In this document: positions 985 through 51,208 of the stretch, one piece after another | How the letters are laid out: each line of letters starts with the position of its first letter | Position numbering within the stretch: position 1 is the stretch's first letter | Source of the DNA: [Eubacterium] siraeum | GTDB taxonomy: Bacteria > Bacillota > Clostridia > Oscillospirales > Ruminococcaceae | Length of the DNA: 64,000 nucleotides | Reading direction: 5' to 3' | Assembly (NCBI GenBank): GCA_025150425.1 | Contig: CP102281.1 | Location: forward strand, 434,001 to 498,000 | Made by a program: the position numbers and the translations under genes | The notes under the pieces: model-generated | Database searches by the model: none | Told to the model about the DNA's origin: nothing | The model's input: the letters and a program-made list of their open reading frames with translations, nothing else

Positions 985-1053
985 AAAGTGGACTCCTTTC
1001 AATTTGCAGGCATTGCTAAAGCATTGCATTTGCTATTACCTTTATAATAGCAT

Positions 1054-1227
1054 CAGACTGTCGAAAAACCTCTATCGTTGTTAAAAATGGGGTTGAGGGG
1101 CGTAGCCCCCAACAGGGACTAGGGGCGGTAGCCCCAGTAATATAGCCCCTTTCCGGGGGAAAGGGGTTTGGGGATAGGGATAATAAATCAGAAGTTTATT
1201 TCAAAAACAGACTTTTTCTACACGCTG
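1054..1227 (+). repeat. Palindrome-associated short element, copy 1
   Basis: This 174-bp element begins CAGACTGTCGAAAAA and ends with the reverse complement of CAGCGTGTAGAAAAA. Its G/C-rich core has three small hairpins. It is flanked by a 24-bp direct repeat (1030-1053 and 1228-1251, one mismatch), and each copy is itself a palindrome (TGCTATTA...TAATAGCA). The rest of the 522-bp divergent gap 985-1506 is AT-rich and holds no convincing gene. Other copies are at 8600, 19218, 29102, 33384, 49226 and 50661. Confidence 0.85.
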
Positions 1228-1506
1228 TTGCTATTATCTTTATAATAGCATATTATGTTTTTTTGTCAAGCCCATCTTGTATTATTTTACTGTATTGTGC
1301 TAAATTAGCTGTAAATTGTACTACATTCTTCGCTTTACCGGAAGCGATACAAAAATTATTCACAAAAGTTCATTTTTGTGTCGGTTTGATATTGACTTTA
1401 GGCTCGAATTGTGTCAAAATAATTATATTAATGTAAATTCGGCGTTTTTCTGCAAAGGAGCGGTAAAACGCCTTATTGTTGCAAAGCGGAAAGGCGAGAA
1501 AAGTAA

Positions 1507-2907
1507 TTGAAATACGATGTAGTAATTGTAGGAGCGGGACCTGCGGGCATCTTCACCGCAATTGAAATGGTCAGAAACGGCTCAGACAAAAAAATACTGA
1601 TAATCGAAAAGGGCGCTTCGGTAGAGAAAAGAAGCTGTCCTAAGGCAAAAACAAAGCACTGTATGAACTGTAAGCCCTACTGCCATATCACAACGGGCTT
1701 TTCGGGCGCAGGCGCATTCTCGGACGGCAAGCTGTCGCTGTCGTGCGAGGTCGGCGGAACGCTCCCCGAGCTTATCGGTGAGGAGCTTGCACAGGAAACC
1801 ATCGACTACACAGACAAGATATATCTTGAATTCGGTGCGGATAAGCACGTTGAGGGCGTAAGCGACCCCGACAAGATAAGAGATATAAGAAAGAAAGCCA
1901 TAAACGCAAACCTGAAGCTGGTTGACTGTCCTATCCGCCACTTAGGAACGGAAATGGCGCACGAACTTTATTTCAAGATAGAAAAATATCTTATCGAAAG
2001 CGGAGTTGAGGTGCTGTTCGGCAAGAACTGCGAGGATATTATAATAGAAGACGGCGTATGTAAGGGTGTTATCATTTCAAATGCCCGTGACGGCGGCGAA
2101 CAGGAAACCATATACGGCGACGAGATAGTAGTCGCAACAGGCCGTAAGGGTGCAGACTGGCTCGAAAAGACCTGCGAGGCGCATAATGTAGAGCACACAC
2201 CGGGTACTGTTGACATCGGCGTAAGAGTGGAAGTCAGAAACGAGGTAATGGAGGAGATAAACGCCGTCCTTTACGAGTCAAAGCTCATCGGCTATCCTCT
2301 GCCGTTTAAGAACAAGGTGCGTACATTCTGCCAGAACCCCGGCGGATTTGTGAGCCAGGAAAACTACGACAACGATTTAGCCGTTGTAAACGGTCACTCA
2401 TATAAAGAGCTTAAGAGCAACAACACAAACCTTGCTATACTTTGCTCGCACAATTTCAGCGTACCGTTCAACCAGCCTATCGAATATGCGAAGAAGGTCG
2501 GCGAGCTTACCAATATGCTCGGTAACGGTCACATTCTTGTACAGCGTTACGGCGATATTCTTGACGGAAAGCGTACATGGCCCAAGGAGCTTAATTTCTC
2601 CAACGTAAGACCTACCCTGCCCGATGCGGTTGCAGGCGACATCACGGCGGCTATGCCTTACCGTACAATGACTAACATTATCAATTTCATAAAGGCTGTG
2701 GATATGGTCGTTCCCGGTTTTGCAAGCCGTGAAACGCTTTTATATTCACCCGAACTTAAATTCTACAGCAACCGTATAAAGATGGACGAGCATTTCAACA
2801 CGAACGTAAAGGGACTGCATTGCTTAGGCGACTCAAGCGGCTGGACAAGAGGACTTATGATGGCGTCTGTAATGGGCGTGCTTATGGGACGTGAATTACT
2901 GAAATAA
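1507..2907 (+). CDS. FAD-dependent oxidoreductase, COG2509-like
   Basis: The 466-residue flavoprotein opens with a Rossmann dinucleotide-binding motif ([12 protein letters not shown], residues 5-16) and an acidic strand end (IIEKG). A cysteine cluster follows ([19 protein letters not shown], about residues 41-59), then [12 protein letters not shown]. The C-terminal [17 protein letters not shown] is the second FAD contact seen in this family of uncharacterised dehydrogenases. The start is TTG at 1507, with a purine-rich GGAAAGGCGAG upstream. It lies 16 bases before xpt and is probably co-transcribed with it. The substrate is unknown. Confidence 0.85.
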
Positions 2908-2923
2908 ACGGAGGAAATGTAAA

Positions 2924-3499
2924 ATGCAGTTACTGGAAGAACGCATAAACAAGGACGGTATAGTAAAAGAGGGAAACGTACTCAAGGTTGACAGCTTTCT
3001 CAATCATCAGATGGATATTGAGCTTTACAACGAGATCGGCAAGGAGTTCCGCAGACTGTTCCCCGACAAGAGCATAAACAAGATACTGACTATAGAAGCG
3101 TCGGGCATCGGCATTGCGTGCGTTACGGCGCAGTATTTCGGATGTCCTGTCGTGTTTGCGAAGAAGGCGCAGAGCGTAAACATAGACGGCGAGGTTTATT
3201 CGACCTCTATCGAGAGCTTTACGCACAAGCGTACATATAACGTAATAGTCAGCAAGAAGTTCCTGTCGCCCGATGACAACGTGCTTATAATCGACGACTT
3301 CCTTGCAAACGGCTGTGCTTTACTCGGCCTTATCGACATAGTAAAGGGCGCAGGCGCAAGTATAGCAGGCGCAGGTATCGTTATAGAAAAGGGCTTCCAG
3401 AAGGGCGGAGACCTTGTCCGCTCGAAAGGCATCAGAGTAGAATCGCTCGCAATAGTTGACTCGATGAGCGTTGACGGCGGCTGTATTTTCAGACACTGA
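2924..3499 (+). CDS. xpt: Xanthine phosphoribosyltransferase
   Basis: The 191-residue enzyme converts xanthine and PRPP to XMP in purine salvage. The PRPP-binding loop is visible as [17 protein letters not shown] (about residues 120-136), and the N-terminus ([20 protein letters not shown]) is characteristic of Xpt. It has a strong GGAGGAAATG ribosome binding site and follows the FAD protein closely. The next genes encode a nucleoside-type ABC importer, so the locus reads as purine uptake and salvage. I could not find a purine riboswitch upstream. Confidence 0.95.
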
Positions 3500-3508
3500 G
3501 CCTTTTAA

Positions 3509-3681
3509 GGCAACACCGCACAATTAACGGCTATCGCCTTTGCCGTACGCTAAGCTTGCATATTTTCCGCCATCTTGCACAAATTTCGCTTGACAGGCGC
3601 CAGCCTGCCTGCGTTCAATTTATACAATCTGACGAAAAATCTGACTAAGCAATCGCACGACAATAATTATGCGGTATTGAC
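3509..3681 (+). repeat. TTAA-flanked MITE-like element, copy A
   Basis: This 173-bp element has terminal inverted repeats of about 18 bp (GGCAACACCGCACAATTA at the left, its partner TAATTATGCGGTATTGAC at the right). TTAA precedes it. An inverted copy of identical length lies at 23449-23621 and is about 90% identical by eye. No coding potential is seen. It occupies most of the gap between xpt and the BMP lipoprotein gene. Confidence 0.85.
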
Positions 3682-3752
3682 TTGTAAATAATCGTATTTA
3701 GCGGCAAAATGCCGTTAATATATCTTTTACTGTTTTAATAGGGAGGAAAAAC

Positions 3753-4895
3753 ATGAAAAAGAAACTTATCGCCATTTTACTGGCGGCAACCTGCGCACTT
3801 ACAGCAGGACTCACAGGCTGCTCCGGCAATGCCGCAACAAGCGGTACGGATGAAAGCAAGACTTCCGACGCACAGAGCACAGGCGACAGCACAGCCAAGA
3901 GCAATGTTGTAGCAGGCTTTGTTTACATCGGCAAGATCAACGACGGCGGTTACACACAGGCTCACGATGCAGGCAGACTTGCAGTTGAGGCTATGGGCGT
4001 AAAGACCTTCTACGTTGAGGACGTACCCGAAACCGTTGCCGACACTAAGGAAGCTATCCAGACACTTATCGATGAAGGCTGCAACCTTATTTACACAAAC
4101 TCATTCGGCTTTATGGAAGGTACAGACCAGATGGCAAAGGAGCATCCCGATGTAAAGTTTGCTCACTGCTCAGGCTATATGAGAGAAGACAATATGTCAA
4201 CCTACTTCGGTAAGGTTTATCAGGCTCGTTACCTTGCAGGTATCGTTGCAGGTATGAAGACACAGAAGAACTACATCGGTTATGTTGCCGCTAAGGGTAT
4301 CCCCGAGGTTATCCGTGGTATCAACGCATTCACACTCGGTGTACAGTCTGTAAACCCCGACGCTAAGGTAGAAGTAGTATTCACAGATACATGGTATGAC
4401 CCCACTGTTGAAAAGCAGGCAGCACTTGAGCTTCTCAACAAGGGTGTTGACATAATAGCTCAGCACCAGGATACAACAGCTCCTCAGGTTGCCGCTGAAG
4501 AAAAGGGCGCATACTGCATCGGCTACAACTTCCCCACATCAGACGCTGCTCCCAAGGCTTACCTCACAGCCGCTTGCTTCGACTGGAAGACATTCTACAC
4601 AGACGATGTAAAGAAGGCTATGGACGGTACATGGACAAGCCGTGCATACTGGGAAGGTCTTTCTGCTAACATGACATACCTTGACAAGCTGACAGACCTC
4701 TGCGCAGAAGGCACACAGGAAAAGGTCGATGCAGCTAAGAAGGCTATCATTGACGGCACACTCGAACCCTTCACAGGTCCTCTCTACGACCAGGAAGGCA
4801 ACAAGAAGGTTGAAGACGGTGTTAAGATGACAGATGACGAGATCTGGAACATGAACTGGTTTGTAAAGGGCGTAACAGGTACTATCCCCGCATAA
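3753..4895 (+). CDS. BMP-family ABC transporter substrate-binding lipoprotein
   Basis: The 380-residue protein has a lipoprotein signal peptide with lipobox LTGC, a Ser/Thr-rich tether, then a BMP/PnrA periplasmic-type fold (VAGFVYIGKINDGGYTQAHDAGR; later GAYCIGYNFPTSDAAPKAYL). BMP proteins bind nucleosides, and the partner ATPase and two permeases follow. Codon use is strongly biased (GCT, AAG, TAC), unlike the downstream transporter genes, which suggests high expression. A stem-loop after the gene may help keep the binding protein in excess. Confidence 0.93.
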   Translation: MKKKLIAILLAATCALTAGLTGCSGNAATSGTDESKTSDAQSTGDSTAKSNVVAGFVYIGKINDGGYTQAHDAGRLAVEAMGVKTFYVEDVPETVADTKEAIQTLIDEGCNLIYTNSFGFMEGTDQMAKEHPDVKFAHCSGYMREDNMSTYFGKVYQARYLAGIVAGMKTQKNYIGYVAAKGIPEVIRGINAFTLGVQSVNPDAKVEVVFTDTWYDPTVEKQAALELLNKGVDIIAQHQDTTAPQVAAEEKGAYCIGYNFPTSDAAPKAYLTAACFDWKTFYTDDVKKAMDGTWTSRAYWEGLSANMTYLDKLTDLCAEGTQEKVDAAKKAIIDGTLEPFTGPLYDQEGNKKVEDGVKMTDDEIWNMNWFVKGVTGTIPA

Positions 4896-4956
4896 TCGAC
4901 AGGTCATAAAATCTTAAGACTATTAAAGACAATACGAGCAGTCCTCAGCGGCTGCC

Positions 4957-5011
4957 CGATTTGTCTTTTTAAAGCACCGGAATATCTGCGATGTTTTAAA
5001 AAGACAAATCG
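4957..5011 (+). promoter_or_regulatory. Intercistronic stem-loop between binding protein and ATPase genes
   Basis: A perfect 17-bp inverted repeat (4957-4973 with 4995-5011, arm CGATTTGTCTTTTTAAA) encloses a 21-base loop and ends 20 bases before the ATPase start. It is not a classical terminator. It could stabilise the upstream mRNA or attenuate read-through so that more binding protein than ATPase is made. Confidence 0.65.
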
Positions 5012-5030
5012 CTATTTTCAAGGAGGTTAT

Positions 5031-6563
5031 ATGGCAGACCCTTATATAAAACTTGAACACATAACCAAATCGTTTGACTCGGTATACGCAAACAAGGATA
5101 TTTCCGTTGACGTATACAAGGGTGAGATACTTGCCCTGCTCGGCGAAAACGGTTCGGGCAAGAGTACCCTTGTAAATATGCTCAGCGGCATATATACGCC
5201 CGACAGCGGTACTATCTCGATCGACGGCAAAAAGATGCACTTCGGTTCTCCCGGTGACGCTATAAAGGCAGGCATCGGTATGGTACACCAGCACTTCAAG
5301 CTGGTCGATGTAATGACAGCCGCAGAAAACGTAGTAATGGGTCACATAAAGCATTTTGTCACATCGAAAAAGCGTATGGCTCACCATGTGAACAAGCTGA
5401 ACGAGAAATACGGTCTTAACGTTACCCCCGACAAGAAGATATACAATATGTCTGTCAGCGAAAAACAGGCTGTAGAGATAATGAAGGCGTTCTACCAAGG
5501 CGCAAACGTTCTTATACTTGACGAGCCTACAGCGGTGCTTACCCCGCAGGAGATAACTGCACTGTTTGCTATTCTCAGAAAGATGAAGGCGCAGGGCTGT
5601 ACGATAATCATTATCACTCATAAGATGGCGGAGGTTATGGATATTTCCGACCGTGTTACCGTTTTGCGTAAGGGCGAATGTATCGGTACGGTAAAAACGA
5701 GCGAAACCACTCCCCAACAGCTTACCGAGATGATGGTCGGCAAGGCGGTAACTCTTGAGATCGAGCGTCCGCAGTGCTGTGACTATAACGCAAAGCCGAT
5801 GCTTTCCGTGAAAAATCTCACGAAGAAAAACACAGACGGCGTAAACGTGCTTGATAACGTGAACTTTGACGTATACGGCGGTGAGATACTCGGTGTTGCA
5901 GGCATAGCAGGAAGCGGTCAGAAGGAGCTTTGCGAGATAATCGCAGGTCTTGACAAAATGACTGACGGCGATATTGAGTTTGACGGCGACAGCATAAAGG
6001 GACTTGATCCCAGAGCGATAATCCGCAAGGGCATCAGTATGAGCTTTGTTCCCGAGGACAGACTCGGTATGGGTCTTGTAGCAGGAATGAGCATAACGAA
6101 CAACGTTATCTTAAAGTCCTATAACCATAATCCCGGTCCGTTCATAGACAGCAAGTTTGCAAAGAAGCTCGCAGAGCAGATAGTACACGATTTTGATATT
6201 TACACCCCATCTGTAAACTACACGGTAAAGAAGCTGTCCGGCGGTAATATACAGAAGGTGCTTCTCGGCAGAGAAATATGGCTCTCGCCCAAGGTGCTTA
6301 TAACCGCTTATCCCGTAAGAGGTCTTGATATAGGTGCGTCATACAATATATATCATATGCTGAACGAGCAGAAGAAAAAAGGCGTTGCCGTGCTGTTCAT
6401 AGGCGAGGATCTTGACGTACTGAAAAGCATTTCCGACAGACTTATGGTAATACACGACGGTGAGATAATCGACATAGTAGACCCCACGACCGTCACTAAG
6501 GAAGACATAGGTCTTATGATGGTGGGCGACCATATCAACAAGGGAGAGGAGAAGGCCGTATGA
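5031..6563 (+). CDS. Nucleoside-type ABC transporter ATPase, two fused domains
   Basis: The 510-residue protein has two nucleotide-binding domains, as in NupA/YufO and the sugar-importer class. Domain 1 has Walker A LGENGSGKST and Walker B VLILDEPTAVLTP, with an altered signature (MSVSEKQAVEIMKAF rather than LSVG-QQRVEI). Domain 2 has a degenerate Walker A (VAGIAGSGQKE), a canonical LSGGNIQK signature and a Walker B lacking the catalytic Glu (VLITAYPVRGLD), which is usual for this family. Start is ATG with a strong AAGGAGGT site. The gene overlaps the next permease by four bases. Confidence 0.95.
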   Translation: MADPYIKLEHITKSFDSVYANKDISVDVYKGEILALLGENGSGKSTLVNMLSGIYTPDSGTISIDGKKMHFGSPGDAIKAGIGMVHQHFKLVDVMTAAENVVMGHIKHFVTSKKRMAHHVNKLNEKYGLNVTPDKKIYNMSVSEKQAVEIMKAFYQGANVLILDEPTAVLTPQEITALFAILRKMKAQGCTIIIITHKMAEVMDISDRVTVLRKGECIGTVKTSETTPQQLTEMMVGKAVTLEIERPQCCDYNAKPMLSVKNLTKKNTDGVNVLDNVNFDVYGGEILGVAGIAGSGQKELCEIIAGLDKMTDGDIEFDGDSIKGLDPRAIIRKGISMSFVPEDRLGMGLVAGMSITNNVILKSYNHNPGPFIDSKFAKKLAEQIVHDFDIYTPSVNYTVKKLSGGNIQKVLLGREIWLSPKVLITAYPVRGLDIGASYNIYHMLNEQKKKGVAVLFIGEDLDVLKSISDRLMVIHDGEIIDIVDPTTVTKEDIGLMMVGDHINKGEEKAV

Positions 6564-7627
6564 GCATGATACAGATTTCAAAGCGGCAGAAAGGCACATC
6601 AAAGCTCGTTGACGTTCTTATAAGAATAGGCGCTATCGTGCTGTCGCTGATATTTATCGGCATTGTTCTTGCCATAATGGGTTATGATCCTTTCAAGGTT
6701 TTCGGCAAAATAATACAGACCCCGTTCAAGCGTTTCAAGGACGTTATGAACAAAACGATAATGCTTACCACTCTTTCGCTCGGTATAGCGATAGCGTTCA
6801 GAATGAAGTTCTGGAATATCGGCGCTGAGGGTCAGTTCTATATGGGCGCATTCGGTGCGGCATCAATGGCTTTTATGTGTCCCGATCTGCCGCCGATACT
6901 CCTTTTACCGCTTATGTGCGTTGCAGGCTTTATCTGCGGTGGCTTATGGGCGCTTATCCCTGCGGTCATCAAAGCAAGATTCGGTGCGAGCGAAACGCTT
7001 GTAACGCTGATGATGAACTATATAGCGATAGCCTTTATAAGCTACCTTCAATACGGTCCGTGGAAAGACCCCGCGGCACTCGGTGCGGCAAAGGTGCCTA
7101 ACTTCTCGGAAAATGCGGTACTGCCCGATGTATTCGGCATTCACGCAGGCTGGATAATTATGCTGATACTCGTAATTATTATGACGATATTGCTCCGCTA
7201 CACAAAGCTCGGCTATCAGATAGACGTTATCGGCGAAAGTGAAACCACCGCAAAATATGCCGGTATGAATACGGTTAAAATTCTGGTGATCGCAGTTCTT
7301 ATCTCCGGCGGTCTTTGCGGAATGGCAGGCTTTATGCAGTCGAGCGCCGTTGAGAAGTCGATAACCGATTCGATGTCGGCAGGTCTTGGCTTTACTGCGG
7401 TAATCACCGCCTGGCTTGCAAAGCTGAAGCCGCCCGTTATCGTGGTTGCGTCGTTTATGTTCTCGATACTTCTCCAGAGCGGAAGCTCGCTTCAGGTAAT
7501 GAAGATACCCTCGTCCATTACGGAAATAATGCAGGGTGTCATAATATTCTTCGTTCTTGCGTGTGAGTTCTTTATAAACTATAAAATATCGCTTCGCAAG
7601 CATACCGCAGTAAAGGAGGCTGAATAA
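6560..7627 (+). CDS. Nucleoside ABC transporter permease 1
   Basis: The 355-residue integral membrane protein has about 9-10 hydrophobic segments. It contains the BPD_transp_2 signatures FWNIGAEGQFYMGAFGA and GASETLVTLMMNYIA, typical of NupP/YufP-like permeases. Its ATG overlaps the ATPase stop (ATGA) and its own stop overlaps the next permease start, so translation is coupled. It should pair with the second permease to form the channel. Confidence 0.94.
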   Translation: MSMIQISKRQKGTSKLVDVLIRIGAIVLSLIFIGIVLAIMGYDPFKVFGKIIQTPFKRFKDVMNKTIMLTTLSLGIAIAFRMKFWNIGAEGQFYMGAFGAASMAFMCPDLPPILLLPLMCVAGFICGGLWALIPAVIKARFGASETLVTLMMNYIAIAFISYLQYGPWKDPAALGAAKVPNFSENAVLPDVFGIHAGWIIMLILVIIMTILLRYTKLGYQIDVIGESETTAKYAGMNTVKILVIAVLISGGLCGMAGFMQSSAVEKSITDSMSAGLGFTAVITAWLAKLKPPVIVVASFMFSILLQSGSSLQVMKIPSSITEIMQGVIIFFVLACEFFINYKISLRKHTAVKEAE

Positions 7628-8571: not shown

Positions 8572-8574
8572 TAT

Positions 8575-8599
8575 AAAGGACGGGTTTTCCCCGTCCTTT
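8575..8599 (+). terminator. Terminator hairpin after the nucleoside transporter
   Basis: The stem AAAGGACGGG/CCCGTCCTTT lies right after the permease stop. Its T-run is replaced by the end of a mobile repeat starting at 8600. Almost the same hairpin, with its T-run, follows rplL at 13139. Confidence 0.75.
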
Positions 8600-8774
8600 C
8601 AGGCTGTCGATAAACCTCTTGATTATATAAAAATGGGGTCGCAGGGGCGTAGCCCCCGACAGGGACTAGGGGCGGTAGCCCCAGTAAAATCCCCCTTTCC
8701 CGGGGAAAGGGGGCAGGGGGATAGGGATAGTAAGTTAGAAGTTTGTTTCAAAAACAGATTTTTTCTACAAGCTG
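8600..8774 (+). repeat. Palindrome-associated short element, copy 2
   Basis: This 175-bp copy starts CAGGCTGTCGATAAA and ends with the complement of CAGCTTGTAGAAAAA, with the same G/C-rich hairpin core as copy 1. It sits exactly between two hairpins (8575-8599 and 8776-8796). Here they are not copies of each other, unlike most other sites. Confidence 0.85.
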
Positions 8775-8775
8775 T

Positions 8776-8803
8776 TGCGGTTGAACTTTCAACCGCATTT
8801 TTT
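8776..8803 (+). terminator. Hairpin with T-run right of element copy 2
   Basis: The stem TGCGGTTGAA/TTCAACCGCA (8776-8785, 8787-8796 region) is followed by seven T. It may be the working terminator for transcripts from the transporter operon. It also insulates the sigma factor gene downstream. Confidence 0.7.
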
Positions 8804-8876
8804 TATTCTCCGACAGACAAAACACATCTGTCAGTTGTATTACATTCAAAGAGAAAAAACTCAGGGGGAACGATTT

Positions 8877-9365: not shown

Positions 9366-9366
9366 A

Positions 9367-11948: not shown

Positions 11949-11977
11949 TTGACAACCGCATTTTAATATGATATAAT
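11949..11977 (+). promoter_or_regulatory. rplJL promoter
   Basis: TTGACA (11949-11954) and TATAAT (11972-11977) are separated by 17 bases: a consensus sigma-A promoter for the ribosomal stalk operon. The 130 bases upstream, after the putative anti-sigma stop, show no gene. Confidence 0.92.
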
Positions 11978-11983
11978 AATCAC

Positions 11984-12099
11984 GCTGTTCTAAAGACAGC
12001 AGGTCGGTTTACCGCTAACGAGCATATGCTCACCTGCCGAGGAATGGGAAGAATACTGAATTTTCTGCCCTTTTCTGTCTTACAGAGGAGGGCATTTTT
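11984..12099 (+). ncRNA. L10 leader (ribosomal protein autoregulatory RNA)
   Basis: The 5' untranslated region of rplJ has the L10-leader architecture: stem GCAGGT/ACCTGC (11999-12004 with 12032-12037), an inner palindrome GAGCATATGCTC, then CCGAGGAATGGGAAG. A hairpin-plus-T-run terminator follows (12066-12094, then five T). In Firmicutes the L10-L12 complex binds such a leader and promotes termination when ribosomal protein is in excess. Confidence 0.85.
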
Positions 12100-12151
12100 A
12101 TTAAATGTTTTTCCTTTTTACGAACAGTAAATCACGAAAGGAGAAAACAAT

Positions 12152-19162: not shown

Positions 19163-19217
19163 GATCGTTTCCTTTCATTTTTGCTTTATCTGATTTATTT
19201 TTTCTCCCGTAGGGAGT

Positions 19218-19393
19218 CAGCTTTTAGAAAAAGTCTGTTTTTTATAAAATAGAGCAAATTCTCCATCCCTAACCCCAAACCCCTTCCCCTCGGGAAGGGG
19301 CTATATTACTGGGGCTACCGCCCCTAGACCCTGTTGGGGGCTACGCCCCTCAACCCCATTTTTTGATAATAATAGAGGCTTTTCGATAGTCTG
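19218..19393 (-). repeat. Palindrome-associated short element, copy 3
   Basis: This 176-bp copy in minus orientation lies between rodA and galK. Its ends are CAGCTTTTAGAAAAA at 19218 and the complement of CAGACTATCGAAAAG at 19393. It is flanked by a 12-14 bp direct repeat (19204-19217 and 19394-19407, core CCCGTAGGGAGT) that forms a small palindrome CTCCC-GTA-GGGAG. Confidence 0.85.
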
Positions 19394-19407
19394 TCCCCGT
19401 AGGGAGT

Positions 19408-29063: not shown

Positions 29064-29077
29064 GCACATACTTAAAC

Positions 29078-29183
29078 AGCCTTCGCTTTTTGCGGAGGCT
29101 GCAGCTTGTAGAAAAGCCCCGATTCGTTTGCGAATCGGGGTTTTTCTACAGTCTGAGCGTAAATCCGTGTCCGGATTTACGCT
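29078..29183 (+). repeat. Mini copy of the palindrome-associated element between two hairpins
   Basis: A 54-bp element (29102-29155) has only the two family ends (CAGCTTGTAGAAAA and the complement of CAGACTGTAGAAAAA) around one hairpin (CCCCGATTCG/CGAATCGGGG). A terminator-like hairpin lies directly left (29078-29100, AGCCT...AGGCT) and a perfect 12-bp stem directly right (AGCGTAAATCCG/CGGATTTACGCT, 29156-29167 with 29172-29183). The rest of the gap 29184-29347 shows no gene. Confidence 0.78.
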
Positions 29184-33283: not shown

Positions 33284-33383
33284 GCTATGCCTGCATTTGA
33301 TTTTTTCAAAGGCGAAGGGAGTATTTAGCAAGGCTGTTGCAAAAAAGTAAAAAATCAGCCGTGCATCGCCTTGATGCACGGCT

Positions 33384-33768
33384 CGGACTGTCGATAAAAC
33401 TATATAATTTTTGAAAATGGGGTGTCGAGTGTTGCTTGCTCTGCTGGTTTTGCATCGTGCAAAACTTTTGGCAAGCAACCAAAGCATCCTTGCTTTGGGG
33501 CTACCGCCCCCGTACAGGTCGTCAGCCATTTGTGCCACTGCATCTGTGCATTGACAGCCTTTTGTGCCGTTGCATCGTGCAACGGCTTTGTGTGGCTGTC
33601 ATTATGCGTCCTTGCATAGTGGCCTTGTGTGGCTGACTGCAAGCATCCTTGCTTGGTCTAGGGGCGGTAGCCCCAGTAAAATCCCCCTTTCACCGAGGGA
33701 AAGGGGGCAGGGGGATAGGGGTAGTGAGTTAGAAGTTTGTTTCAAAAACATACTTTTTCTACAAACTG
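33384..33768 (+). repeat. Palindrome-associated short element, copy 4, with nested-hairpin insert
   Basis: This 385-bp element starts CGGACTGTCGATAAA and ends TTTTTCTACAAACTG. Its right half matches copies 1-3; its left half is replaced by about 230 bp of nested hairpins (33431-33655). It is flanked by identical 27-bp hairpins (33357-33383 and 33769-33795; stem AGCCGTGCATC/GATGCACGGCT), the right one followed by T. No credible gene lies in the 587-bp gap 33215-33801. Confidence 0.87.
33431..33655 (+). repeat. Nested-hairpin modules N1 and N2
   Basis: N1: outer stem GTTGCTTGC/GCAAGCAAC (33431-33439, 33471-33479) encloses GTTTTGC/GCAAAAC (33447-33453, 33459-33465), then a side hairpin CAAAGC/GCTTTG. 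N2 is four levels deep: GTCAGCCA/TGGCTGAC (33521, 33630), GCCACT/AGTGGC (33534, 33618), TGACAGCC/GGCTGTCA (33552, 33594), GCCGTTGC/GCAACGGC (33566, 33579). Terminal loops keep the core GC-RTCS-T-GC, and the connectors are mostly TTTGTG-like. Confidence 0.85.
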
Positions 33769-33801
33769 AGCCGTGCATCGCCTTGATGCACGGCTTTTAT
33801 G

Positions 33802-40960: not shown

Positions 40961-40980
40961 TTTTACCCTTTCTTATTTGC

Positions 40981-42260: not shown

Positions 42261-42316
42261 AAAGATTACCGTCCTTTCTGTATCGGGCTATCCTTGTGAG
42301 TTTGAATTTCGAAATA

Positions 42317-42345: not shown

Positions 42346-42566
42346 GGCAAAACGCATAAACTTCACCGCAAACTTTTGATACGGACCTGTTTTTTTGCCG
42401 CAGAAATATCCGTTTTTGCGAAAAGCTCACCTACAGCATAAATCATCAGCGTGACGGTTTTCTGCATATTGTCCGTAAATGTACACTGCAAGCGGTTTTG
42501 CGGCCTGTTTTTTTCAAAACTCATTCATCGTTTTTCATCACCTGTGATTTATGCCTGTTTTTTTCA

Positions 42567-44347: not shown

Positions 44348-44428
44348 ATTTCATTCCCCCTTTGATTTTTATTGTATCATAAATAACGTTGATTTTCAAT
44401 TTTTTTGTAATAAAAAAAACAAAAAAGG

Positions 44429-44457
44429 TTGAATTATTCTCCGCTTTTCATTATAAT
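44429..44457 (+). promoter_or_regulatory. Promoter of the FtsA-like gene
   Basis: TTGAAT (44429-44434) and TATAAT (44452-44457) with a 17-base spacer, about 98 bases before the start codon. Confidence 0.8.
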
Positions 44458-44554
44458 TATAATCAGCAGTAGTACGAAATACGAAAAATAAAATCAAAGA
44501 ATACTCTGTAAGCCTTTACGGGTTTACGGAATTTCAAGAAAGGGAGTAAATAAA

Positions 44555-46741
44555 ATGCCGGCACCTAAAAGAAGAGGCAGACCGAGAAAAGAAGAATCTG
44601 CCGTAAAAAATACAAGCGAAAATAAAAAGACCACAGCTAAATCAGCCACAGCAAAGAAAACTACGGCAAAGAAGCCGTCAGCATCTGCTAAAAAGACGCT
44701 GAAACCGCAGGGAGATACGGTTTTTGCACTTGATATAGGCACAAGGACGGTCGTAGGCGTACTGGGCTATATGGACGGCGAAACCTTCCGTGTGACCGAT
44801 ACCGAGAGCGTTCCGCATCTGAAGCGTGCAATGATAGACGGACAGGTAGAGGATATTGAGCAGGTAGCAAAGGTAGCACGCACCGTAAAGGAAACGCTCG
44901 AGCAGAGAAACTCCATCAGGTTGACAGAGGTTTCTGTAGCCGCCGCAGGCCGTGCGCTCAAGACCTACCGTGTGTCGATGGATTTTGACGTTTCAGACAA
45001 GAACACTATCACAGCGGATATGATACGCACGATGGAGTGCGAAACAATACAGAAGGCGCAGAAAGGGATAGACGAGAAGTACAGCAACGAGGACGCTGTA
45101 TTCTACTGCGTAGGTCACTCGGTAGTGCATTATTACCTTGACGATTACGCAATGGTAAACCTTGAGGGGCATAAGGGCGACAAGGTCACTATAGAGCTTA
45201 TCGGTGCATTTCTGCCCGAGGTCGTAGTAGAGGGTCTGTATGCCGCTACAGATAAGACGGGGCTTAAGGTAAAGAGTATGACGCTCGAGCCTATCGCCGC
45301 AATGAACGTGATAATTCCGCCGGAGATACGGCTTATCAATATTGCTCTCGTGGATATAGGCGCAGGTACGTCTGATATTGCGATAGCCCGTGACGGCGCT
45401 ATAGTAGCCTATGCGATGGCAACTGTCGCAGGTGATGAGATAAGCGAGGATATTGTAAGGAAATTCTTCGTTGATTTCAATATGGCGGAGAGCATGAAAA
45501 TACAGGCGAGCGGCGACACGGACAGCATTACATACCGTGACATTTTCGGCAGGGAGCGGACAATATCTAAGGATGATTTCTTCGAGAAATGCAGTCCGTC
45601 CGTTGACAGCCTTGCGGATGTGATAAGCCAGACGGTATGTGACGCAAACGGGCAGAGCCCTGCCGCAATGTTCCTTATAGGCGGCGGAAGTATGGCTAAC
45701 GGCCTTGCGGACGCACTTGCGGACAAGCTCGGAATAGATCACGGAAGGGTCGCTGTAGGCGGTCAGGAATTTATGAAAAACGTTGATGTGGGCGACAGAA
45801 AGCTGGGTCCTGAGTATGTAACTCCTGTCGGCATTGCGGTCACAGCCTGCACCAATATGGCATATGATTTCTCGACCGTGACGCTAAACGGCGAGCAGGT
45901 AAGGGTGTTCAATACAAAGTCGCTCAGCGTATTTGAGCTTCTCGGCTCGGCAGGCTTCAAAACCTCTCAGATAATGGGTCACAGCGGCGCAGGACTTAAG
46001 TTCACTCTTAACGGCGAAACGAAGATGCTCAAAGGCACTGCGTTTATTCCTGCGGTAATCACTGTAAACGACAAGCCTGCCGCACTTACAACAAAGATAA
46101 AGCAGGGCGACAGCATAACGCTTACGCCTGCGGTGAACGGCGAAAACGCACACGCATTTATCCGTGATTATGCAGACAATATTTCAAGGGTAAGCGTCAT
46201 ATTCTGCGGTGAAAATGCGGTAGCCGGAAAACGTGCCTACGCAAACGGAAAAGAAGTCGGCAAGGACTATGAGATACAGCCGCTTGACAATATAGAGATA
46301 CACGACGCAAGAACGCTCGGAGCGTTCCTTATGCAGTACGGCGGAGATACGCAGACCGCAACCGTATATGTAAACGGCGAGGAAAAGCCCGAAAGCTATG
46401 TTCTTTGTGACGGGGATATACTGGGCTTTGATAAAGGCTCGTCTTCTGAAGCGGTACAAGCCGCCGCTGCCGCTGAGAGCGCATCGGGAGTGCAAACGGC
46501 TGAGGATATACAGACAGCGGAGCAGGGGAATTTTGTATCCGTAATCTTCAACGGTGTTCCGACCGATCTTCCCGAAAAGGAGAGCAAAACTCCGTATATG
46601 CTTATAGACCTGTTTGAAAGAGCGAATATTGACATTGAAAATCCCACACGCAGACTTGTGCTTACGGTAAACGGGAAAAGTGCGAAGTTCACCGACAAGA
46701 TACAGTCGGGCGACATTGTGGTAATAAAGCAGGAGGACTGA
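44555..46741 (+). CDS. FtsA/PilM-like actin-fold ATPase with AT-hook-like N-terminus
   Basis: The 728-residue protein begins with KRRGRPRKEE (residues 5-14), an AT-hook-like motif, then a Lys/Ala/Thr-rich linker to about residue 50. Residues 55-460 form an FtsA-type actin ATPase: phosphate-1 VFALDIGTRTVVGV, phosphate-2 IALVDIGAGTSDIAI and adenosine motif FLIGGGSMANGLADAL. The remaining 270 residues hold repeated beta-grasp-like segments (TVNDKPAALTTKIKQGDSIT; LTVNGKSAKFTDKIQSGDIV), unlike classical FtsA. A role in division or DNA/membrane organisation is inferred. The GH26-like gene follows after one base. Confidence 0.85.
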   Translation: MPAPKRRGRPRKEESAVKNTSENKKTTAKSATAKKTTAKKPSASAKKTLKPQGDTVFALDIGTRTVVGVLGYMDGETFRVTDTESVPHLKRAMIDGQVEDIEQVAKVARTVKETLEQRNSIRLTEVSVAAAGRALKTYRVSMDFDVSDKNTITADMIRTMECETIQKAQKGIDEKYSNEDAVFYCVGHSVVHYYLDDYAMVNLEGHKGDKVTIELIGAFLPEVVVEGLYAATDKTGLKVKSMTLEPIAAMNVIIPPEIRLINIALVDIGAGTSDIAIARDGAIVAYAMATVAGDEISEDIVRKFFVDFNMAESMKIQASGDTDSITYRDIFGRERTISKDDFFEKCSPSVDSLADVISQTVCDANGQSPAAMFLIGGGSMANGLADALADKLGIDHGRVAVGGQEFMKNVDVGDRKLGPEYVTPVGIAVTACTNMAYDFSTVTLNGEQVRVFNTKSLSVFELLGSAGFKTSQIMGHSGAGLKFTLNGETKMLKGTAFIPAVITVNDKPAALTTKIKQGDSITLTPAVNGENAHAFIRDYADNISRVSVIFCGENAVAGKRAYANGKEVGKDYEIQPLDNIEIHDARTLGAFLMQYGGDTQTATVYVNGEEKPESYVLCDGDILGFDKGSSSEAVQAAAAAESASGVQTAEDIQTAEQGNFVSVIFNGVPTDLPEKESKTPYMLIDLFERANIDIENPTRRLVLTVNGKSAKFTDKIQSGDIVVIKQED

Positions 46742-46742
46742 C

Positions 46743-48362
46743 TTGCATATCAGGAAACTAACGGCACTCACGCTTGCCGTCATAATGCTTGCCGGCTGTT
46801 CGGAAATCGACTATTCCTCAGTGACTTCCGATAACAGTGCGGATACCTCGTCAAACGGGGAAACATCTGTACCGCAGGCGAGTATTGTGACCGAAAATAA
46901 AACCAAAGAATACAAAATCAACAAATCAAATTTCAGCTATGTTCTTGAAGCGGAAAAGACGGAAGGAACAAAGCTGATCTCGGATGACAGAAAGTACAGC
47001 GGCGAGGGATATATCACAGTGGGCGCTTACAAATCGGTATCGTTTGATATGGAAGTGCCTTCGACACAGTTTTACGATATTGCGATAACCGCACTGTCCG
47101 ATGACGGCGGAAGTATCACTCTTATTGTTGACGGCGACAAGCAGATAAACAGCGAAAACGGCAGCTATAAGCGTATGAACGGCGAACTGTACGGAGCGTA
47201 TAACATAGTACAGAGCGATACGTTCGAGAGCCATTCGTTATGTCCTGTATATCTTACGCAGGGAACGCACAGGATAACACTCCAGACGGTAAAAAACAGC
47301 GTTTCTTTAGACAAGATAACTGTAAAGAACACAGAAAAAGCGGCCGATAAGCGTTACTCCCAGGCAGGAACGTGGATCTCGGGCAAGGATGTAAATACCG
47401 ACCGTATTGAACTTATGGATTATCTCAAAAGCATTTACGGCAGGAAAACGCTTACGGCGCAGGCCGTAACGCCTAACACGAATACCGAAATTGACGCAAT
47501 CGTAAAGAACACTGGACGGTTTCCTGCGATAAGAGCGAGTGATTTAAGATACTATACGGCAAGCGGTGCTAAGCTTGTGAAAAACAACACGGATATTCAG
47601 CTTTCACAGGAATGGGCTAAAAACGGCGGTATAGTGTCATACGCATGGTACTGGTATACGCCTATAGGAAAGACTACCTTCTACCGTGAAGAAAGCACAT
47701 TTGACATCGGTGCGGCTGTAAGCGACTATGAGGATCTGGCGGTAATGAATGAGGAATCGCTGGCACAGCTTCTTGAGGACGAAACAATATCGGAGGAATG
47801 CTATGCTGTGCTGTCGGATATGGACGCAATAGCAAAACAGCTATCCGTTCTCAAGGACAGTGGTGTTACGGTGCTTTTCCGACCGCTGCCTGCAAGCAGT
47901 GCGGGGCTGTACTGGTGGGAAAAGAACAGCAAGACTTATAAATGGCTGTGGCAGACTATGCACAGGAGATTTGACGAACTGTACGGGCTGTCAAACCTGC
48001 TGTGGATATACACGGCGGATATTGACCCTCAGATGTTCCCCGGTGACGATTATGTCGATATAGTCGGCTGTGACGTATATGACAATACCGATACCGCTCA
48101 TCTTGCGGCGATGTATGCAACGGATTCATTATCGCTGAACAAGCGTATGCTGGCACTCACGGAGTGTGCCGTATATCCGGACCCTGACATAATGGCAAGG
48201 GATAATGCAATGTGGCTGTGGACGGCTATGTGGAACGGTAAATATCTTATCAACGAAAGCGGAGAGCTGACGGGTGACTATATATCGGTAGAACAGCTGA
48301 AGAAATTCTACAATCACGAGGCTACTGTCACAAGGGACGAAATAGGAAAACAGAAAGAATAA
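46743..48362 (+). CDS. GH26-like lipoprotein with N-terminal carbohydrate-binding module, acid Glu missing
   Basis: The 539-residue protein starts at TTG 46743 after AGGAGG and has a lipoprotein signal (lipobox LAGC). Residues 50-200 look like a CBM35/CBM6 beta-sandwich (FSYVLEAEKTEGTKL ... HRITLQTVKN). Residues 215-520 match the GH26 mannanase barrel (GGIVSYAWYWYTPIG, VLFRPLPASSAGLYWWE, LLWIYTADID, ALTECAVYP). In active GH26 the acid/base lies in RPLHE; here it is RPLPA (Ala384). The nucleophile position is Glu474. It may bind glycan without cutting. Confidence 0.83.
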   Translation: MHIRKLTALTLAVIMLAGCSEIDYSSVTSDNSADTSSNGETSVPQASIVTENKTKEYKINKSNFSYVLEAEKTEGTKLISDDRKYSGEGYITVGAYKSVSFDMEVPSTQFYDIAITALSDDGGSITLIVDGDKQINSENGSYKRMNGELYGAYNIVQSDTFESHSLCPVYLTQGTHRITLQTVKNSVSLDKITVKNTEKAADKRYSQAGTWISGKDVNTDRIELMDYLKSIYGRKTLTAQAVTPNTNTEIDAIVKNTGRFPAIRASDLRYYTASGAKLVKNNTDIQLSQEWAKNGGIVSYAWYWYTPIGKTTFYREESTFDIGAAVSDYEDLAVMNEESLAQLLEDETISEECYAVLSDMDAIAKQLSVLKDSGVTVLFRPLPASSAGLYWWEKNSKTYKWLWQTMHRRFDELYGLSNLLWIYTADIDPQMFPGDDYVDIVGCDVYDNTDTAHLAAMYATDSLSLNKRMLALTECAVYPDPDIMARDNAMWLWTAMWNGKYLINESGELTGDYISVEQLKKFYNHEATVTRDEIGKQKE

Positions 48363-48378
48363 CAGGCGGTGAAACAAG

Positions 48379-49188
48379 GTGAGCGGAAAACAGAAGATAT
48401 ACGATAAGCTGATAAGCGGCAACGCTTCCGTGCAGAACCGTTATTTTTCCTTCGTTTCATCTCACGGCAGGCTTCACGGGATAATGCCCGCAGCGGCGTG
48501 GGGGTACGCATTGCTGTTATATCTTAAGTACAGCGTGTTTCATTTTTCCGACAGGAAATTCGGAGAATACTCGCTGTCGGCTGAGGAAACAGCGGAGCTT
48601 TTGTGTAAAGCAGATGTAGTATCGTTTGATATTTTCGATACGCTGATTTTCCGCAGTGTTTCACGAAAAGAGGTTTTCGACAATACGGGCAGAACGCTTG
48701 GCATAGAGAATTTCGGAAAAATCAGGGCTGACAGTGAAAATGAAGCAAGAAAAGAAAAGAAAGAGCCGTGCATAAATGATATTTATCGTATTATAGCCGT
48801 GAAAGCAGGGCTTACGGACAAAGCCGCCGAAGAAGCCGTGAAAGCCGAATGCAATGAGGAATTTTCGGTTTGCCGTGCCGACCCGTTCATGCTTGATGTG
48901 TACGGCAGGGTAATCTCCTGCGGAAAAACGGTTATTATCACGACCGATATGTATCTTACCGAAAGCGTTATCTCAAAGCTGCTTTGCGACAACGGGTTCA
49001 GCGGTTATGAAAAGCTGTTCGTTTCGTGCGAATACGGGTGCGGAAAAGCGGACGGAGGGCTGTATCGGATAATTAAAAACGAGTACGGCGGCAAGAGGAT
49101 CGTTCATATGGGGGATAATTATATGAGCGATGTTCTGACGGCAGGAAAAGCCGGGCTTGAAGCGGTGTATTATCGCAGAAAAGCATAA
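48379..49188 (+). CDS. HAD-superfamily hydrolase-like protein
   Basis: The 269-residue protein has HAD motif I SFDIFDTLIFR, motif II IITTDMYL, a motif III Lys in CGKADGGLY and motif IV HMGDNYMSDV, so the catalytic set appears complete. HAD proteins of this type occur in cell-surface polysaccharide clusters. Start is GTG with AGGCGGTG upstream. It lies in the same transcript as the GH26-like gene. The substrate is unknown. Confidence 0.85.
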   Translation: MSGKQKIYDKLISGNASVQNRYFSFVSSHGRLHGIMPAAAWGYALLLYLKYSVFHFSDRKFGEYSLSAEETAELLCKADVVSFDIFDTLIFRSVSRKEVFDNTGRTLGIENFGKIRADSENEARKEKKEPCINDIYRIIAVKAGLTDKAAEEAVKAECNEEFSVCRADPFMLDVYGRVISCGKTVIITTDMYLTESVISKLLCDNGFSGYEKLFVSCEYGCGKADGGLYRIIKNEYGGKRIVHMGDNYMSDVLTAGKAGLEAVYYRRKA

Positions 49189-49192
49189 ATAA

Positions 49193-49731
49193 AGTGAAAT
49201 CCGACAGGGTGTTCCTGTCGGATTTCGGTTTGTAGAAAAGTATGTTTTTTCAAAAAAGTGCTTGTCCTTAATCCCTATAAGAACGCTTAGTGGGCTTTGC
49301 AAGGATGCAGAGCCCACTAAGCATACACAGACGCTCGCCTTACGAAAATCGAGAGTGATAGTGCGGTTTTGGAAGGGTTGATATGGGCGAGGGTTGGTGT
49401 GACAATCCCTCCGTCTTGACGGCAGAAAAGTTTGGTGAATAAAAAAAGACGGACATATCGCAAGTAAAACGCAACAAGGCAACAATTTGTGCCTTGTCGT
49501 CAAGCCACCTCCCTTTGACAAGGGAGGCAAGTTTAGTGCGGGGCAAGGGATAGTGCGTTTTTTTGAAAGGTTATTGTCGGGCAGTTGTAATGATGTACTC
49601 ACGAAATTATTAATACTTTGTCGGTACGGAAAGTGTTTTAGGCGGTGTTGGTGATATGTTTAACAGTGCGGATTTAATAATAATCGGCTTTTCGACAGAG
49701 TGAAATCCGACAGGGTGTTCCTGTCGGATTT
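49193..49731 (+). repeat. Long palindrome-associated element, copy 5, with duplicated terminator
   Basis: A 473-bp element (49226-49698, minus orientation) is flanked by identical 33-bp sequences (49193-49225 and 49699-49731). Each contains the terminator stem AAATCCGACAGG/CCTGTCGGATTT; the right copy keeps a T-run. Ends are CGGTTTGTAGAAAAG and CTTTTCGACAG. Inside are a hairpin GCTTAGTGGGCT/AGCCCACTAAGC (49285, 49311) and a D-type repeat (49390-49530). No gene lies in the 547-bp gap. Confidence 0.85.
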
Positions 49732-49735
49732 GTTT

Positions 49736-50620
49736 TTATATGCCTTCAAAATCCCATTCGGGAGTATACTCGAAGGTAGCGCTTTCTTTATCCTGCGTGT
49801 AGCCGTCAAAGCCAAGCTGAGCGGCGTAATCGGTAACCGAGTTATATTCAAAAGTGGTAAGTCTTCTTGAAAGATTCTTTATTTCAAGGGCTTTTCCGCA
49901 AGGTGTGTACTGGCGCATAAGGCTTATCCTTATATTGCTTACAGGAACGGTGGCTTTAAGTATATCAAGCACCTTCATACTGTCGTGACGGCAACCGGGA
50001 AGTACGAGGTGGCGGACAAGAACGCCCTTTTTCATCATACCGTTTTCATCAAACTGCACTTTTCCTGTCTGCCTGTACATTTCCGCAATCGCCTTTACCG
50101 CAACGGAAGGGTAGTCGGGTGCGGAGGAATATTCACGGGCAAGGTCGGGCGAGGCATACTTGAAATCGGGCAGGTAAATGTCAATCAGCCCGTCAAGCAT
50201 TTTCAGCGTTTCTACCTTTTCGTATCCGCCGCAGTTATAAACTACCGGTATATGAAGCCGTGGCTTTATGCTTGTCAGCACTCCGGCTATAATATCGGCA
50301 TAATGAGTGGGTGTTACAAGGTCGATGTTATGCGCACCTTTTTCCTGAAGCTCAAGCATTATTTCTCCGAGCCTTTCCGGTGTTATTTCCTTGCCGAAGC
50401 CGTCACGGCTTATGGGCATATTCTGGCAGAATATACATTTCAGCGAACAGCCGGAAAAGAATATCGTTCCTGCGCCTCTGCCGTCCGTTCCGGAAATGCA
50501 CGGCTCTTCGCCGAAGTGGAGTGACGCTTTGGCTGTTTTAAGTCCTTTTACGGAGCAGGCACCTGTTGTTTTACTGCGGTCTATACGGCAGTTGCGTGGG
50601 CAAAGTGTACATAGTGGCAT
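49736..50620 (-). CDS. Radical SAM protein, PflA-like (COG1313)
   Basis: The 294-residue protein has an N-terminal Cys motif (CTLCPRNCRIDR), the radical SAM cluster GCSLKCIFCQN (CxxxCxxC type) and PDFKYASPDLAREYS. It resembles the anaerobic activase-like family without a known substrate. No glycyl radical enzyme gene is adjacent, so its target cannot be assigned. RBS is AAAGGAG. Confidence 0.9.
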   Translation of the reverse strand: MPLCTLCPRNCRIDRSKTTGACSVKGLKTAKASLHFGEEPCISGTDGRGAGTIFFSGCSLKCIFCQNMPISRDGFGKEITPERLGEIMLELQEKGAHNIDLVTPTHYADIIAGVLTSIKPRLHIPVVYNCGGYEKVETLKMLDGLIDIYLPDFKYASPDLAREYSSAPDYPSVAVKAIAEMYRQTGKVQFDENGMMKKGVLVRHLVLPGCRHDSMKVLDILKATVPVSNIRISLMRQYTPCGKALEIKNLSRRLTTFEYNSVTDYAAQLGFDGYTQDKESATFEYTPEWDFEGI

Positions 50621-50638
50621 ATTGTTCTCCTTTAAAAA

Positions 50639-51194
50639 ACCGCTCCTGTTACGGAGCGGTCAGGTCTGTAGAAATAGTGTTTTGCTTGAAGTGGTTCTGT
50701 TATATCATTCAGCTTAGACCACGATAGCAAGCTACCGATAGTTCTTTTTGTCGGACAGCACTTCTCGGGTTCGCTATTCCAATCAATGCACCTGTCAATA
50801 TGAAAGAGGGAGACAACCAAAGGGATCAGGACAAGGGACTTGACAGCCCCTCTCCCTGTCCCTTAGGTTTTCTCCCTCTTGCTCCCTCTTTCCTTACCCA
50901 TACCCACACCCCGTCGGGGTGTTAGTGAAGCTCGAATAACCACCTGAACATTGTACATCCTGTCAATTCAGGGACGCTTAACGCTACACGTCCGCATATT
51001 AGTACATATATCGCAGGTTAGTGGCGTTTTTTTTGAAAGGTCAATGTTAGAGCAGTTGCATTGATAAGGTCACGAAATTATTAACGCCTTGTCGGTACGG
51101 AAAGTGTTTCTGGCGGTGTCGGCGGTATATTATACGTTGCGATTTAATGATAAATCGGATTTTGACAAGCTGACCGCTCCTGTTACGGAGCGGT
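50639..51194 (-). repeat. Long palindrome-associated element, copy 6, with duplicated terminator
   Basis: A 512-bp element (50661-51172, minus orientation) has ends CAGGTCTGTAGAAA and the complement of CAGCTTGTCAAAA. It is flanked by identical 22-bp hairpins (50639-50660 and 51173-51194, stem ACCGCTCC/GGAGCGGT). The left copy keeps the T-run of the PpiC gene terminator (minus strand). About 120 bp at its right end match copy 5; its middle is unrelated. No gene is seen in 50621-51208. Confidence 0.85.
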
Positions 51195-51208
51195 CAATTA
51201 TCTGCATA

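What the first reader, a model, noticed from the sequence alone, without database searches (positions are those of the whole stretch)
1030..51196. Short element family whose insertion sites carry whole duplicated hairpins
Seven elements (1054, 8600, 19218, 29102, 33384, 49226, 50661) share ends near CAGACTGTCGAAAAA and CAGCTTGTAGAAAAA. In five of them the element lies exactly between two copies of one palindrome: 24 bp (one mismatch), 12-14 bp, 27 bp, 33 bp and 22 bp, the last three identical. At 49193, 50639 and 33769 the palindrome is a recognisable terminator. Ordinary transposases give duplications of fixed length; here length follows the hairpin. That suggests recognition and copying of a folded palindrome. 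No transposase lies inside, so they would be moved in trans.
Basis: partly seen in the sequence, partly recalled or inferred. Interest (0 to 1): 0.82.

Follow-up and report, generated by a model that had tools for sequence, protein, structure and literature searches.

The report
Mobile elements that duplicate whole hairpins
The window holds short, transposase-free mobile elements of the IS1182 family that insert into DNA hairpins, mostly transcription terminators, and leave a copy of the hairpin on each side, so the duplicated stretch varies with the hairpin instead of having the fixed length usual for transposons.

Summary
All seven elements exist; five lie between two copies of one palindrome. 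They belong to a family with 78 exact ends in this 2.69 Mb genome (0 in the reversed-pattern control). Thirty-seven own elements have a direct repeat of 9-32 bp; over 67 elements (37 own, 21 of a relative, 9 full-length IS) the repeat is centred exactly on a palindrome in 46. Three sites compared with a relative carry one hairpin without the element and two with it; a fourth was uninformative.

The mobilising enzyme is identified by inference. Full-length IS1182-family insertion sequences with the same ends make the same duplications: 40 of 62 scorable named copies, 20-39 bp. The window genome has no cognate transposase; 16 of 71 genomes of the genus have a match, mostly fragments.

IS1182 targeting of palindromes is known: IS1272 replaces stem-loops, and whole-stem-loop duplication was drawn as a hypothetical pathway in 2017. 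I found no paper documenting it, but the main IS reviews and ISfinder were not available. A sister subgroup appears to duplicate only the loop (4 of 7 copies). Cruciform recognition is the best-fitting mechanism, not shown.

The parts
1030..1053 (.). left copy of 24-bp palindrome
   Evidence: direct repeat with 1228-1251, 1 mismatch
1054..1227 (.). MITE, 174 bp
   Evidence: inverted ends CAGACTGTCGAAAAA / CAGCGTGTAGAAAAA
1228..1251 (.). right copy of 24-bp palindrome
8575..8599 (.). hairpin abutting the left end, different from the right one
   Evidence: read from sequence
8600..8774 (.). MITE, 175 bp, different hairpin at each end, at a synteny break with G384
8776..8797 (.). hairpin abutting the right end
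   Evidence: read from sequence
19206..19217 (.). left copy of 12-bp palindromic repeat
   Evidence: one hairpin in G384
19218..19393 (.). MITE, 176 bp, reverse orientation
19396..19407 (.). right copy of 12-bp repeat, two bases from the element end
29077..29101 (.). hairpin abutting the left end
   Evidence: read from sequence; G384 left flank has one hairpin next to the aligned part
29102..29155 (.). 54-bp minimal palindromic element, different hairpin at each end, at a synteny break
29156..29183 (.). hairpin abutting the right end
   Evidence: read from sequence; single hairpin in the G384 right flank
33357..33383 (.). left copy of 27-bp terminator-like palindrome
   Evidence: identical to 33769-33795
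33384..33768 (.). MITE, 385 bp
33769..33795 (.). right copy, followed by T's
   Evidence: G384 right flank has one hairpin
49197..49225 (.). left copy of 29-bp terminator-like palindrome
49226..49702 (.). MITE, 477 bp
49703..49731 (.). right copy of 29-bp palindrome
50639..50661 (.). left copy of 23-bp terminator-like palindrome
   Evidence: one hairpin in G384
50662..51172 (.). MITE, 511 bp, diverged ends (2 and 3 mismatches)
51173..51195 (.). right copy of 23-bp palindrome

Best explanation
The elements are MITEs (transposase-free derivatives) of one subgroup of the IS1182 family of DDE-transposase insertion sequences. SHOWN: the MITEs share terminal inverted repeats CAGNNTGTMGAAAAA with full-length IS1182 elements; both MITEs and full-length IS are mostly flanked by direct copies of a palindrome, about 15-39 bp by site in the clear cases, centred on its dyad, with edges near the stem base; three relative sites without the element have one copy. 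INFERRED: an IS1182 transposase, now not found in this genome, moved the MITEs in trans. It recognises the target by structure, most likely the four-way junction at the foot of an extruded cruciform, and joins the element's 3' ends to the 5' foot of the hairpin on each strand. The gap to be repaired is then the whole hairpin, so it appears on both sides. Junction geometry does not depend on arm length, which would explain the variable duplication. Because the left copy keeps its A-tract and the right copy its T-tract, a two-way terminator should still work in both directions, making the insertion nearly harmless.
For: 78 exact ends, 0 in the control. 37 elements with repeats in own sequence and 21 in G384; pairing 0.70 against 0.25 shifted; centre offset 0 in 46 of 67. 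Ends abut hairpins: 57 of 78 against 177 of 6000 random. Full-length IS1182 copies with a whole-hairpin repeat: 9 of 13 loci of the order with both ends (out of 29 loci); 40 of 62 scorable named loci (80 loci kept of 548 found); six of the 13 are the same sites as loci of the 62. Also 7 of 10 hand-picked plasmid loci and 6 of 11 viral-contig loci. In 39 of the 40 the symmetry centre equals the repeat centre; repeat and palindrome lengths correlate, r = 0.59. One complete genome, C. piscis BP5G, eight copies: repeats of 20, 22, 22, 23, 25 and 31 bp without mismatch, 35 bp with two mismatches, and one copy (L183) with the same hairpin and a one-base indel by eye, which the script filed under different hairpins. 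Empty sites: window 50662 and 19218 against G384, and G384 L258 against own L004. IS1182 profile above its cut-off, DDE domains. IS1182 gene fragments beside such ends in the same genus (L085, with both ends; L086, L096, L099, one end each) and in G028 of another family (L091). The outermost repeat base is A in 0.81 of IS edges and the GC-rich stem begins two to three bases inside.
Against: 17 of 62 named IS copies (16 without L183), 4 of 13, 3 of 11 viral loci, 1 of 10 plasmid loci and two of the seven window elements have a different hairpin at each end; recombination between copies or mis-assembly is assumed, not shown. One copy (L198) has an 8-bp repeat and no hairpin, and 4 of 62 have a hairpin at one end only. 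Of 20 further IS1182 stretches scanned, one (L291) is whole-hairpin, eight gave no pair of ends, and the rest have other ends or no clear repeat. Only 23 of 37 own repeats pair at 0.7 or more in exact register; some are weak or short (L007 9 bp, L001 10 bp). The palindrome often runs on into the A/T tract beyond the repeat, so length agreement is imperfect (difference -20 to +9). The fourth two-flank comparison (1054) is uninformative. No transposition was observed; cruciform extrusion is untested; no cognate transposase was found in the window genome.
Confidence: 0.88

Rival explanations
1. The transposase reads terminator sequence (A-tract, GC stem, T-tract) as ordinary double-stranded DNA, as an inverted repeat with flexible spacing; no folding is involved.
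For: Most targets look like intrinsic terminators; the cut edge is A-rich (A 0.81 at position 0 of IS copies); 33 of 40 IS sites have 5 or more T (3' side) or A (5' side) in 8 nt.
Against: AT-rich palindromes that do not look like terminators are also used (window 1054; L002; L036; L262); the two cuts are symmetric about the dyad while the spacing runs from about 15 to 39 bp, which a fixed dimer on straight DNA would hardly span.
Confidence: 0.25
2. The hairpins belong to the element (it carries its own terminator at each end).
For: They abut the ends exactly.
Against: Hairpin sequence differs from site to site while the ends are conserved; three sites without the element carry one hairpin of the local type.
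Confidence: 0.02
3. Both hairpins existed first (tandem terminators) and the element inserted between them.
For: Tandem terminators occur (recalled); some elements have two different hairpins.
Against: The copies are direct repeats including the loop in 40 of 62 IS loci; three empty sites have one hairpin.
Confidence: 0.03
4. Copies with different hairpins arise when the two ends join two different hairpins, giving deletions or inversions directly, rather than by later recombination between copies.
For: Window 8600 and 29102 sit at synteny breaks with G384; 17 of 62 named copies are filed as this type.
Against: Recombination between repeated copies or short-read mis-assembly gives the same picture; all 8 copies in the complete C. 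piscis genome have the same hairpin at both ends, L183 by eye.
Confidence: 0.2

Closest known systems
IS1182 family: IS1272 / TnSha1 (Wan 2017 PMC5678879: abstract, sections 22 and 24, part 1 of section 29 read; Furi 2016 PMC4923244: passages read)
   Same: Same transposase family by the papers' assignment; targets are hairpins, often terminators, of unrelated sequence.
   Different: IS1272 and TnSha1 remove or replace the stem-loop, wholly or in part, and make no duplication; here the stem-loop is duplicated. Wan's Fig 13 pathway b (attack at the 5' feet, whole stem-loop duplicated) was only hypothetical there.
Other IS1182 members with short duplications (ISPse1, 4 bp, PMC3281130; ISCaa15, 4 bp, PMC3196728; passages read)
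   Same: Same family by the papers' assignment.
   Different: Short duplication. A sister subgroup found here (ends GGAGCTGTTGACAAA and similar) duplicates 5-7 bp that form the loop of a hairpin in 4 of 7 copies.
IS1634 / IS1549 (PMC2266710, passages read)
   Same: Long duplications of variable length (8-514 bp); that paper says no mechanistic model had been proposed.
   Different: Different family; the passages read do not link the length to a palindrome.
Group IIC introns (recalled; search listing only)
   Same: Insert next to terminator hairpins (recalled).
   Different: Retroelements without terminal inverted repeats or target duplication (recalled).
Bacterial MITEs in general (review PMC10969869, passages read)
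   Same: Short, no gene, terminal inverted repeats, direct repeats, derived from a parent IS.
   Different: IS1182 does not occur in that review's text; direct repeats here vary with a hairpin.

Membership tests
IS1182 family (mobilising IS) | transposase matches the curated IS1182 profile above its cut-off | tested here: met
   403.5, 386.1 and 380.7 bits against 270 for L105, L114, L116; NCBI names most of the plasmid relatives IS1182
IS1182 family (mobilising IS) | DDE catalytic domain | tested here: met
   PF13751 and PF01609 above cut-off in all three; catalytic residues not checked one by one
IS1182 family (window elements) | same terminal inverted repeats as cognate full-length IS | tested here: met
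   CAGNNTGTMGAAAAA-type ends, few mismatches, in 13 of L101-L129 and in 67 of L130-L209
IS1182 family (window elements) | mobilised in trans by that transposase | not testable with these tools
   no cognate match in the window genome; same ends and same target mode only
MITE | short, multi-copy, inverted ends, no transposase, direct repeats | tested here: met
   37 own elements of 166-601 bp with direct repeats, too short for a 1.4-kb transposase gene
IS1272-type stem-loop replacement | target hairpin lost, no duplication | tested here: not met
   two hairpins at filled and one at empty sites, three sites
REP/BIME or IS200/IS605-type elements | no terminal inverted repeats and no target duplication (recalled definition) | tested here: not met
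   conserved inverted ends and 9-32 bp direct repeats
Casposon / CRISPR spacer integration | Cas1 integrase | tested here: inconclusive
   the partner enzyme found is an IS1182 DDE transposase; no Cas1 search was run
known Rfam RNA family | match above gathering score over the elements | tested here: not met
   only an L10 leader at 11972-12107 in the window

The most novel reading that the evidence does not exclude
A broad branch of IS1182 transposases (found here in Clostridia, Bacilli, rhizobia and one Chloroflexota MAG whose copy is nearly identical to a Peptococcaceae one) selects targets by DNA shape: it cuts both 5' feet of an extruded hairpin, so that target duplication length is set by arm length, while a sister branch cuts at the loop and duplicates only the loop. 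The family would then carry three target modes on one fold (replace, duplicate the stem-loop, duplicate the loop), and insertion at terminators would keep termination intact on both strands.
Probability: 0.5. Interest if true: 0.78.

Novelty: new variant of a known kind. Interest (0 to 1): 0.62.

Why it matters
Target duplication length is normally a fixed property of a transposase. Here it appears to be set by the target's structure, which makes DNA-structure recognition by a DDE enzyme directly testable with plasmids carrying hairpins of different lengths. It could also explain how dozens of copies can sit in a small genome with little harm: inserting at a terminator and duplicating it should leave termination intact in both directions. 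It gives a natural example of a pathway that was only drawn as a possibility for IS1272, and it warns that MITE and IS annotators that expect short fixed duplications may miss such elements.

Tried and rejected
Own-genome helper: NF033551 finds only a broken gene near 243 kb, without these ends (up to 2 mismatches) in the two fetched loci; the cognate alignment A1 gives no match in G000. Full-length IS1182 copies L083 and L084 have other ends. Hairpins as part of the element, and two pre-existing hairpins: rejected on the empty sites. CRISPR/casposon-like integration: considered because repeats are duplicated; set aside because the partner found is a DDE transposase (no Cas1 search run). Rfam gave nothing at the elements. 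Orthologous site of 1054 in G384: a larger segment differs, uninformative. Loop mode: more copies sought in viral contigs (one locus, L333, at the centre of a palindrome), in phages (hits not fetched) and in plasmids (of which six were fetched and proved to be of the whole-hairpin type). It rests on 4 of 7 copies: L112, L116, L117 and, less perfectly, L295; not L120 and L292 (both of one genome); L297 unclear. ISSep1 (L318) and the plasmid copy L310: no ends found. Tree: the whole-hairpin rows lie on one side of a branch (94/93), but the 33 rows were chosen for that trait, one (L193) gave no hit and was dropped, L318, L124 and L122 are long branches, and the loop copies fall in two lineages (3 changes). 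Not in print: search listings 17, 19, 20, 36-38, 45, 89, 90 showed no paper describing whole-hairpin duplication, and among the papers opened only Wan's hypothetical pathway does; most listed papers were not opened. Siguier 2014 and 2015 are not held, and ISfinder/TnPedia were not available. From recall only: the ISfinder summary gives IS1182 variable direct repeats up to about 60 bp, so curators may already know of it.
Full report
Observation. The window is positions 434001-498000 of an unnamed 2,694,742-base genome. The exact end CAGNNTGTNGAAAAA occurs 78 times in it and 0 times when the pattern is read backwards. I fetched about 1.5 kb around every hit outside the window. Pairing inverted ends and asking for a direct repeat at the outer edges gave 38 rows, a few overlapping; after removal of overlaps, with a looser threshold, 37 elements in own sequence and 21 in fetched stretches of the close relative G384. 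All seven elements of the finding are there; five have the same palindrome on both sides, with corrected lengths of 24, 12, 27, 29 and 23 bp. 8600 and 29102 have a different hairpin at each end.

The repeat is the hairpin. Over 67 elements (37 own, 21 G384, 9 full-length IS) the repeat pairs with itself at 0.70 when read from its own two edges; windows shifted by 8-30 nt give 0.25. Pairing of 0.7 or more: 23 of 37 own, 14 of 21 G384, 8 of 9 IS, against 15 of 3082 shifted windows. The best symmetry centre is the repeat centre in 46 of 67; many of the others are off by half a base or one base. Pairing drops at the repeat edge: about 0.75 just inside, 0.48 at the outermost position, 0.36 just outside. 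The outermost repeat bases are A-rich and the GC-rich stem begins two to three bases inside; there is little other sequence preference. Ends abut a hairpin in 57 of 78 cases against 177 of 6000 random positions.

Empty sites. In G384 the site of window 50662-51172 has one hairpin, with both flanks aligned (81 and 77% identity); so has the site of 19218-19393 (85 and 85%). Conversely a G384 element (L258) is absent from the window genome at L004, where one hairpin stands (93 and 81%). A fourth comparison with both flanks aligned, 1054, differs over a larger segment and says nothing. One-sided evidence: the right flank of 33384 and each side of 29102 have single hairpins next to the aligned part in G384, but synteny breaks there, as it does at 8600. 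Three elements are shared at the same site in both genomes (L012/L288, L036/L260, L007/L287).

The mobilising enzyme. The IS1182 profile finds only a broken gene in the window genome, without these ends. In relatives, IS1182 gene fragments lie beside ends of this type (L085 between two ends; L086, L091, L096, L099 next to one), and intact IS1182 elements of 1.5-1.6 kb in the same order carry them. Of 29 loci in that set (L101-L129), 13 were paired; 9 of the 13 are flanked by an identical or near-identical whole hairpin of 27-39 bp, 4 by two different hairpins. A scan of named genomes found 548 relatives and kept the best 80: 62 scorable, of which 40 have a whole-hairpin repeat, 17 two different hairpins, 4 one hairpin, 1 none; 13 had an end not found and 5 a cut flank. 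The two sets overlap: six of the 13 are the same sites as loci of the 62, and L191 and L192 show the same 34-nt flanks. In Chakrabartyella piscis BP5G, a complete genome, eight copies of one IS show the mode: six repeats without mismatch of 20 to 31 bp, one of 35 bp with two mismatches, and one copy (L183), filed by the script under different hairpins, with the same hairpin and a one-base indel. For the 40, the symmetry centre equals the repeat centre in 39, and repeat and palindrome lengths correlate (r = 0.59), with the palindrome often running a few bases further into the A/T tract. Of ten plasmid loci that I picked from the hit lists, seven do the same (two Bacillus, Alkalihalophilus ISBspe1, Sutcliffiella, three Rhizobium), one has two different hairpins and two gave no ends. 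Of 11 viral-contig loci scanned, six do the same, three have two different hairpins, two are unresolved. Twenty further stretches gave one whole-hairpin copy (L291), eight without a pair of ends, and others with different ends or no clear repeat. The proteins score 381-403 bits on the IS1182 profile, cut-off 270, and carry DDE domains. The cognate alignment finds nothing in the window genome but has matches, mostly fragments, in 16 of 71 genomes of its genus.

Mechanism. A DDE transposase joins two 3' ends to the two target strands; the distance between the joints becomes the duplication. Here that distance is the hairpin, 15-39 bp in the clear cases, symmetric about the dyad. On straight DNA a fixed dimer would hardly span such a range. 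If the palindrome is extruded, the two 5' feet lie on a four-way junction of constant geometry whatever the arm length. This is Wan's pathway b (PMC5678879, section 29, part 1), offered there as a hypothetical alternative to stem-loop replacement by IS1272. Extrusion and trans-mobilisation are inferred. The left copy keeps the A-tract and the right copy the T-tract, so a two-way terminator should still work on both strands; this is read from the sequence, not measured.

A second mode. Relatives in a sister branch (ends GGAGCTGTTGACAAA and similar) have 5-7 bp duplications that are the loop of a hairpin whose stem flanks the insertion: L112, L116, L117 and, less perfectly, L295, of seven copies examined. 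L116 and L117 encode nearly identical transposases at different sites. This is Wan's pathway c. It is a lead, not a result.

What is known. IS1272 and TnSha1 insert into hairpins and delete them, wholly or in part, without duplication, and Furi 2016 cites Siguier 2015 that some IS1182 members target palindromes. Two other IS1182 members are listed with 4-bp duplications. I found no paper that documents whole-hairpin duplication, but most listed papers were not opened and the standard IS reviews and database were out of reach. I therefore rate this a new variant of a known kind.

Noticed in passing
L112, L116, L117, L295 (IS1182 loci of other genera): A sister IS1182 subgroup whose 5-7 bp target duplication is the loop of a hairpin; L333 and L302 sit at the centre of a palindrome.
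   Followed up: partly
window 8600-8774, 29102-29155, 33384-33768: Synteny with the close relative G384 breaks at these elements, suggesting that the MITEs mediate rearrangements.
   Followed up: partly
window 29102-29155; L051 4001-4045; L052 3960-4015: Minimal elements of about 45-56 bp consisting of little more than two ends that pair into one hairpin.
   Followed up: no
L023 1340-2104 (genome 1336733-1337497): Two elements of different length in series share hairpins: three copies of one palindrome around two elements.
   Followed up: no
L012 1813-2122 and L288 1448-1622: Same site and same hairpin in two related genomes, but the element is 310 bp in one and 175 bp in the other.
   Followed up: no
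window 11972-12107: Ribosomal protein L10 leader (Rfam RF00557), an ordinary cis-regulatory RNA.
   Followed up: no
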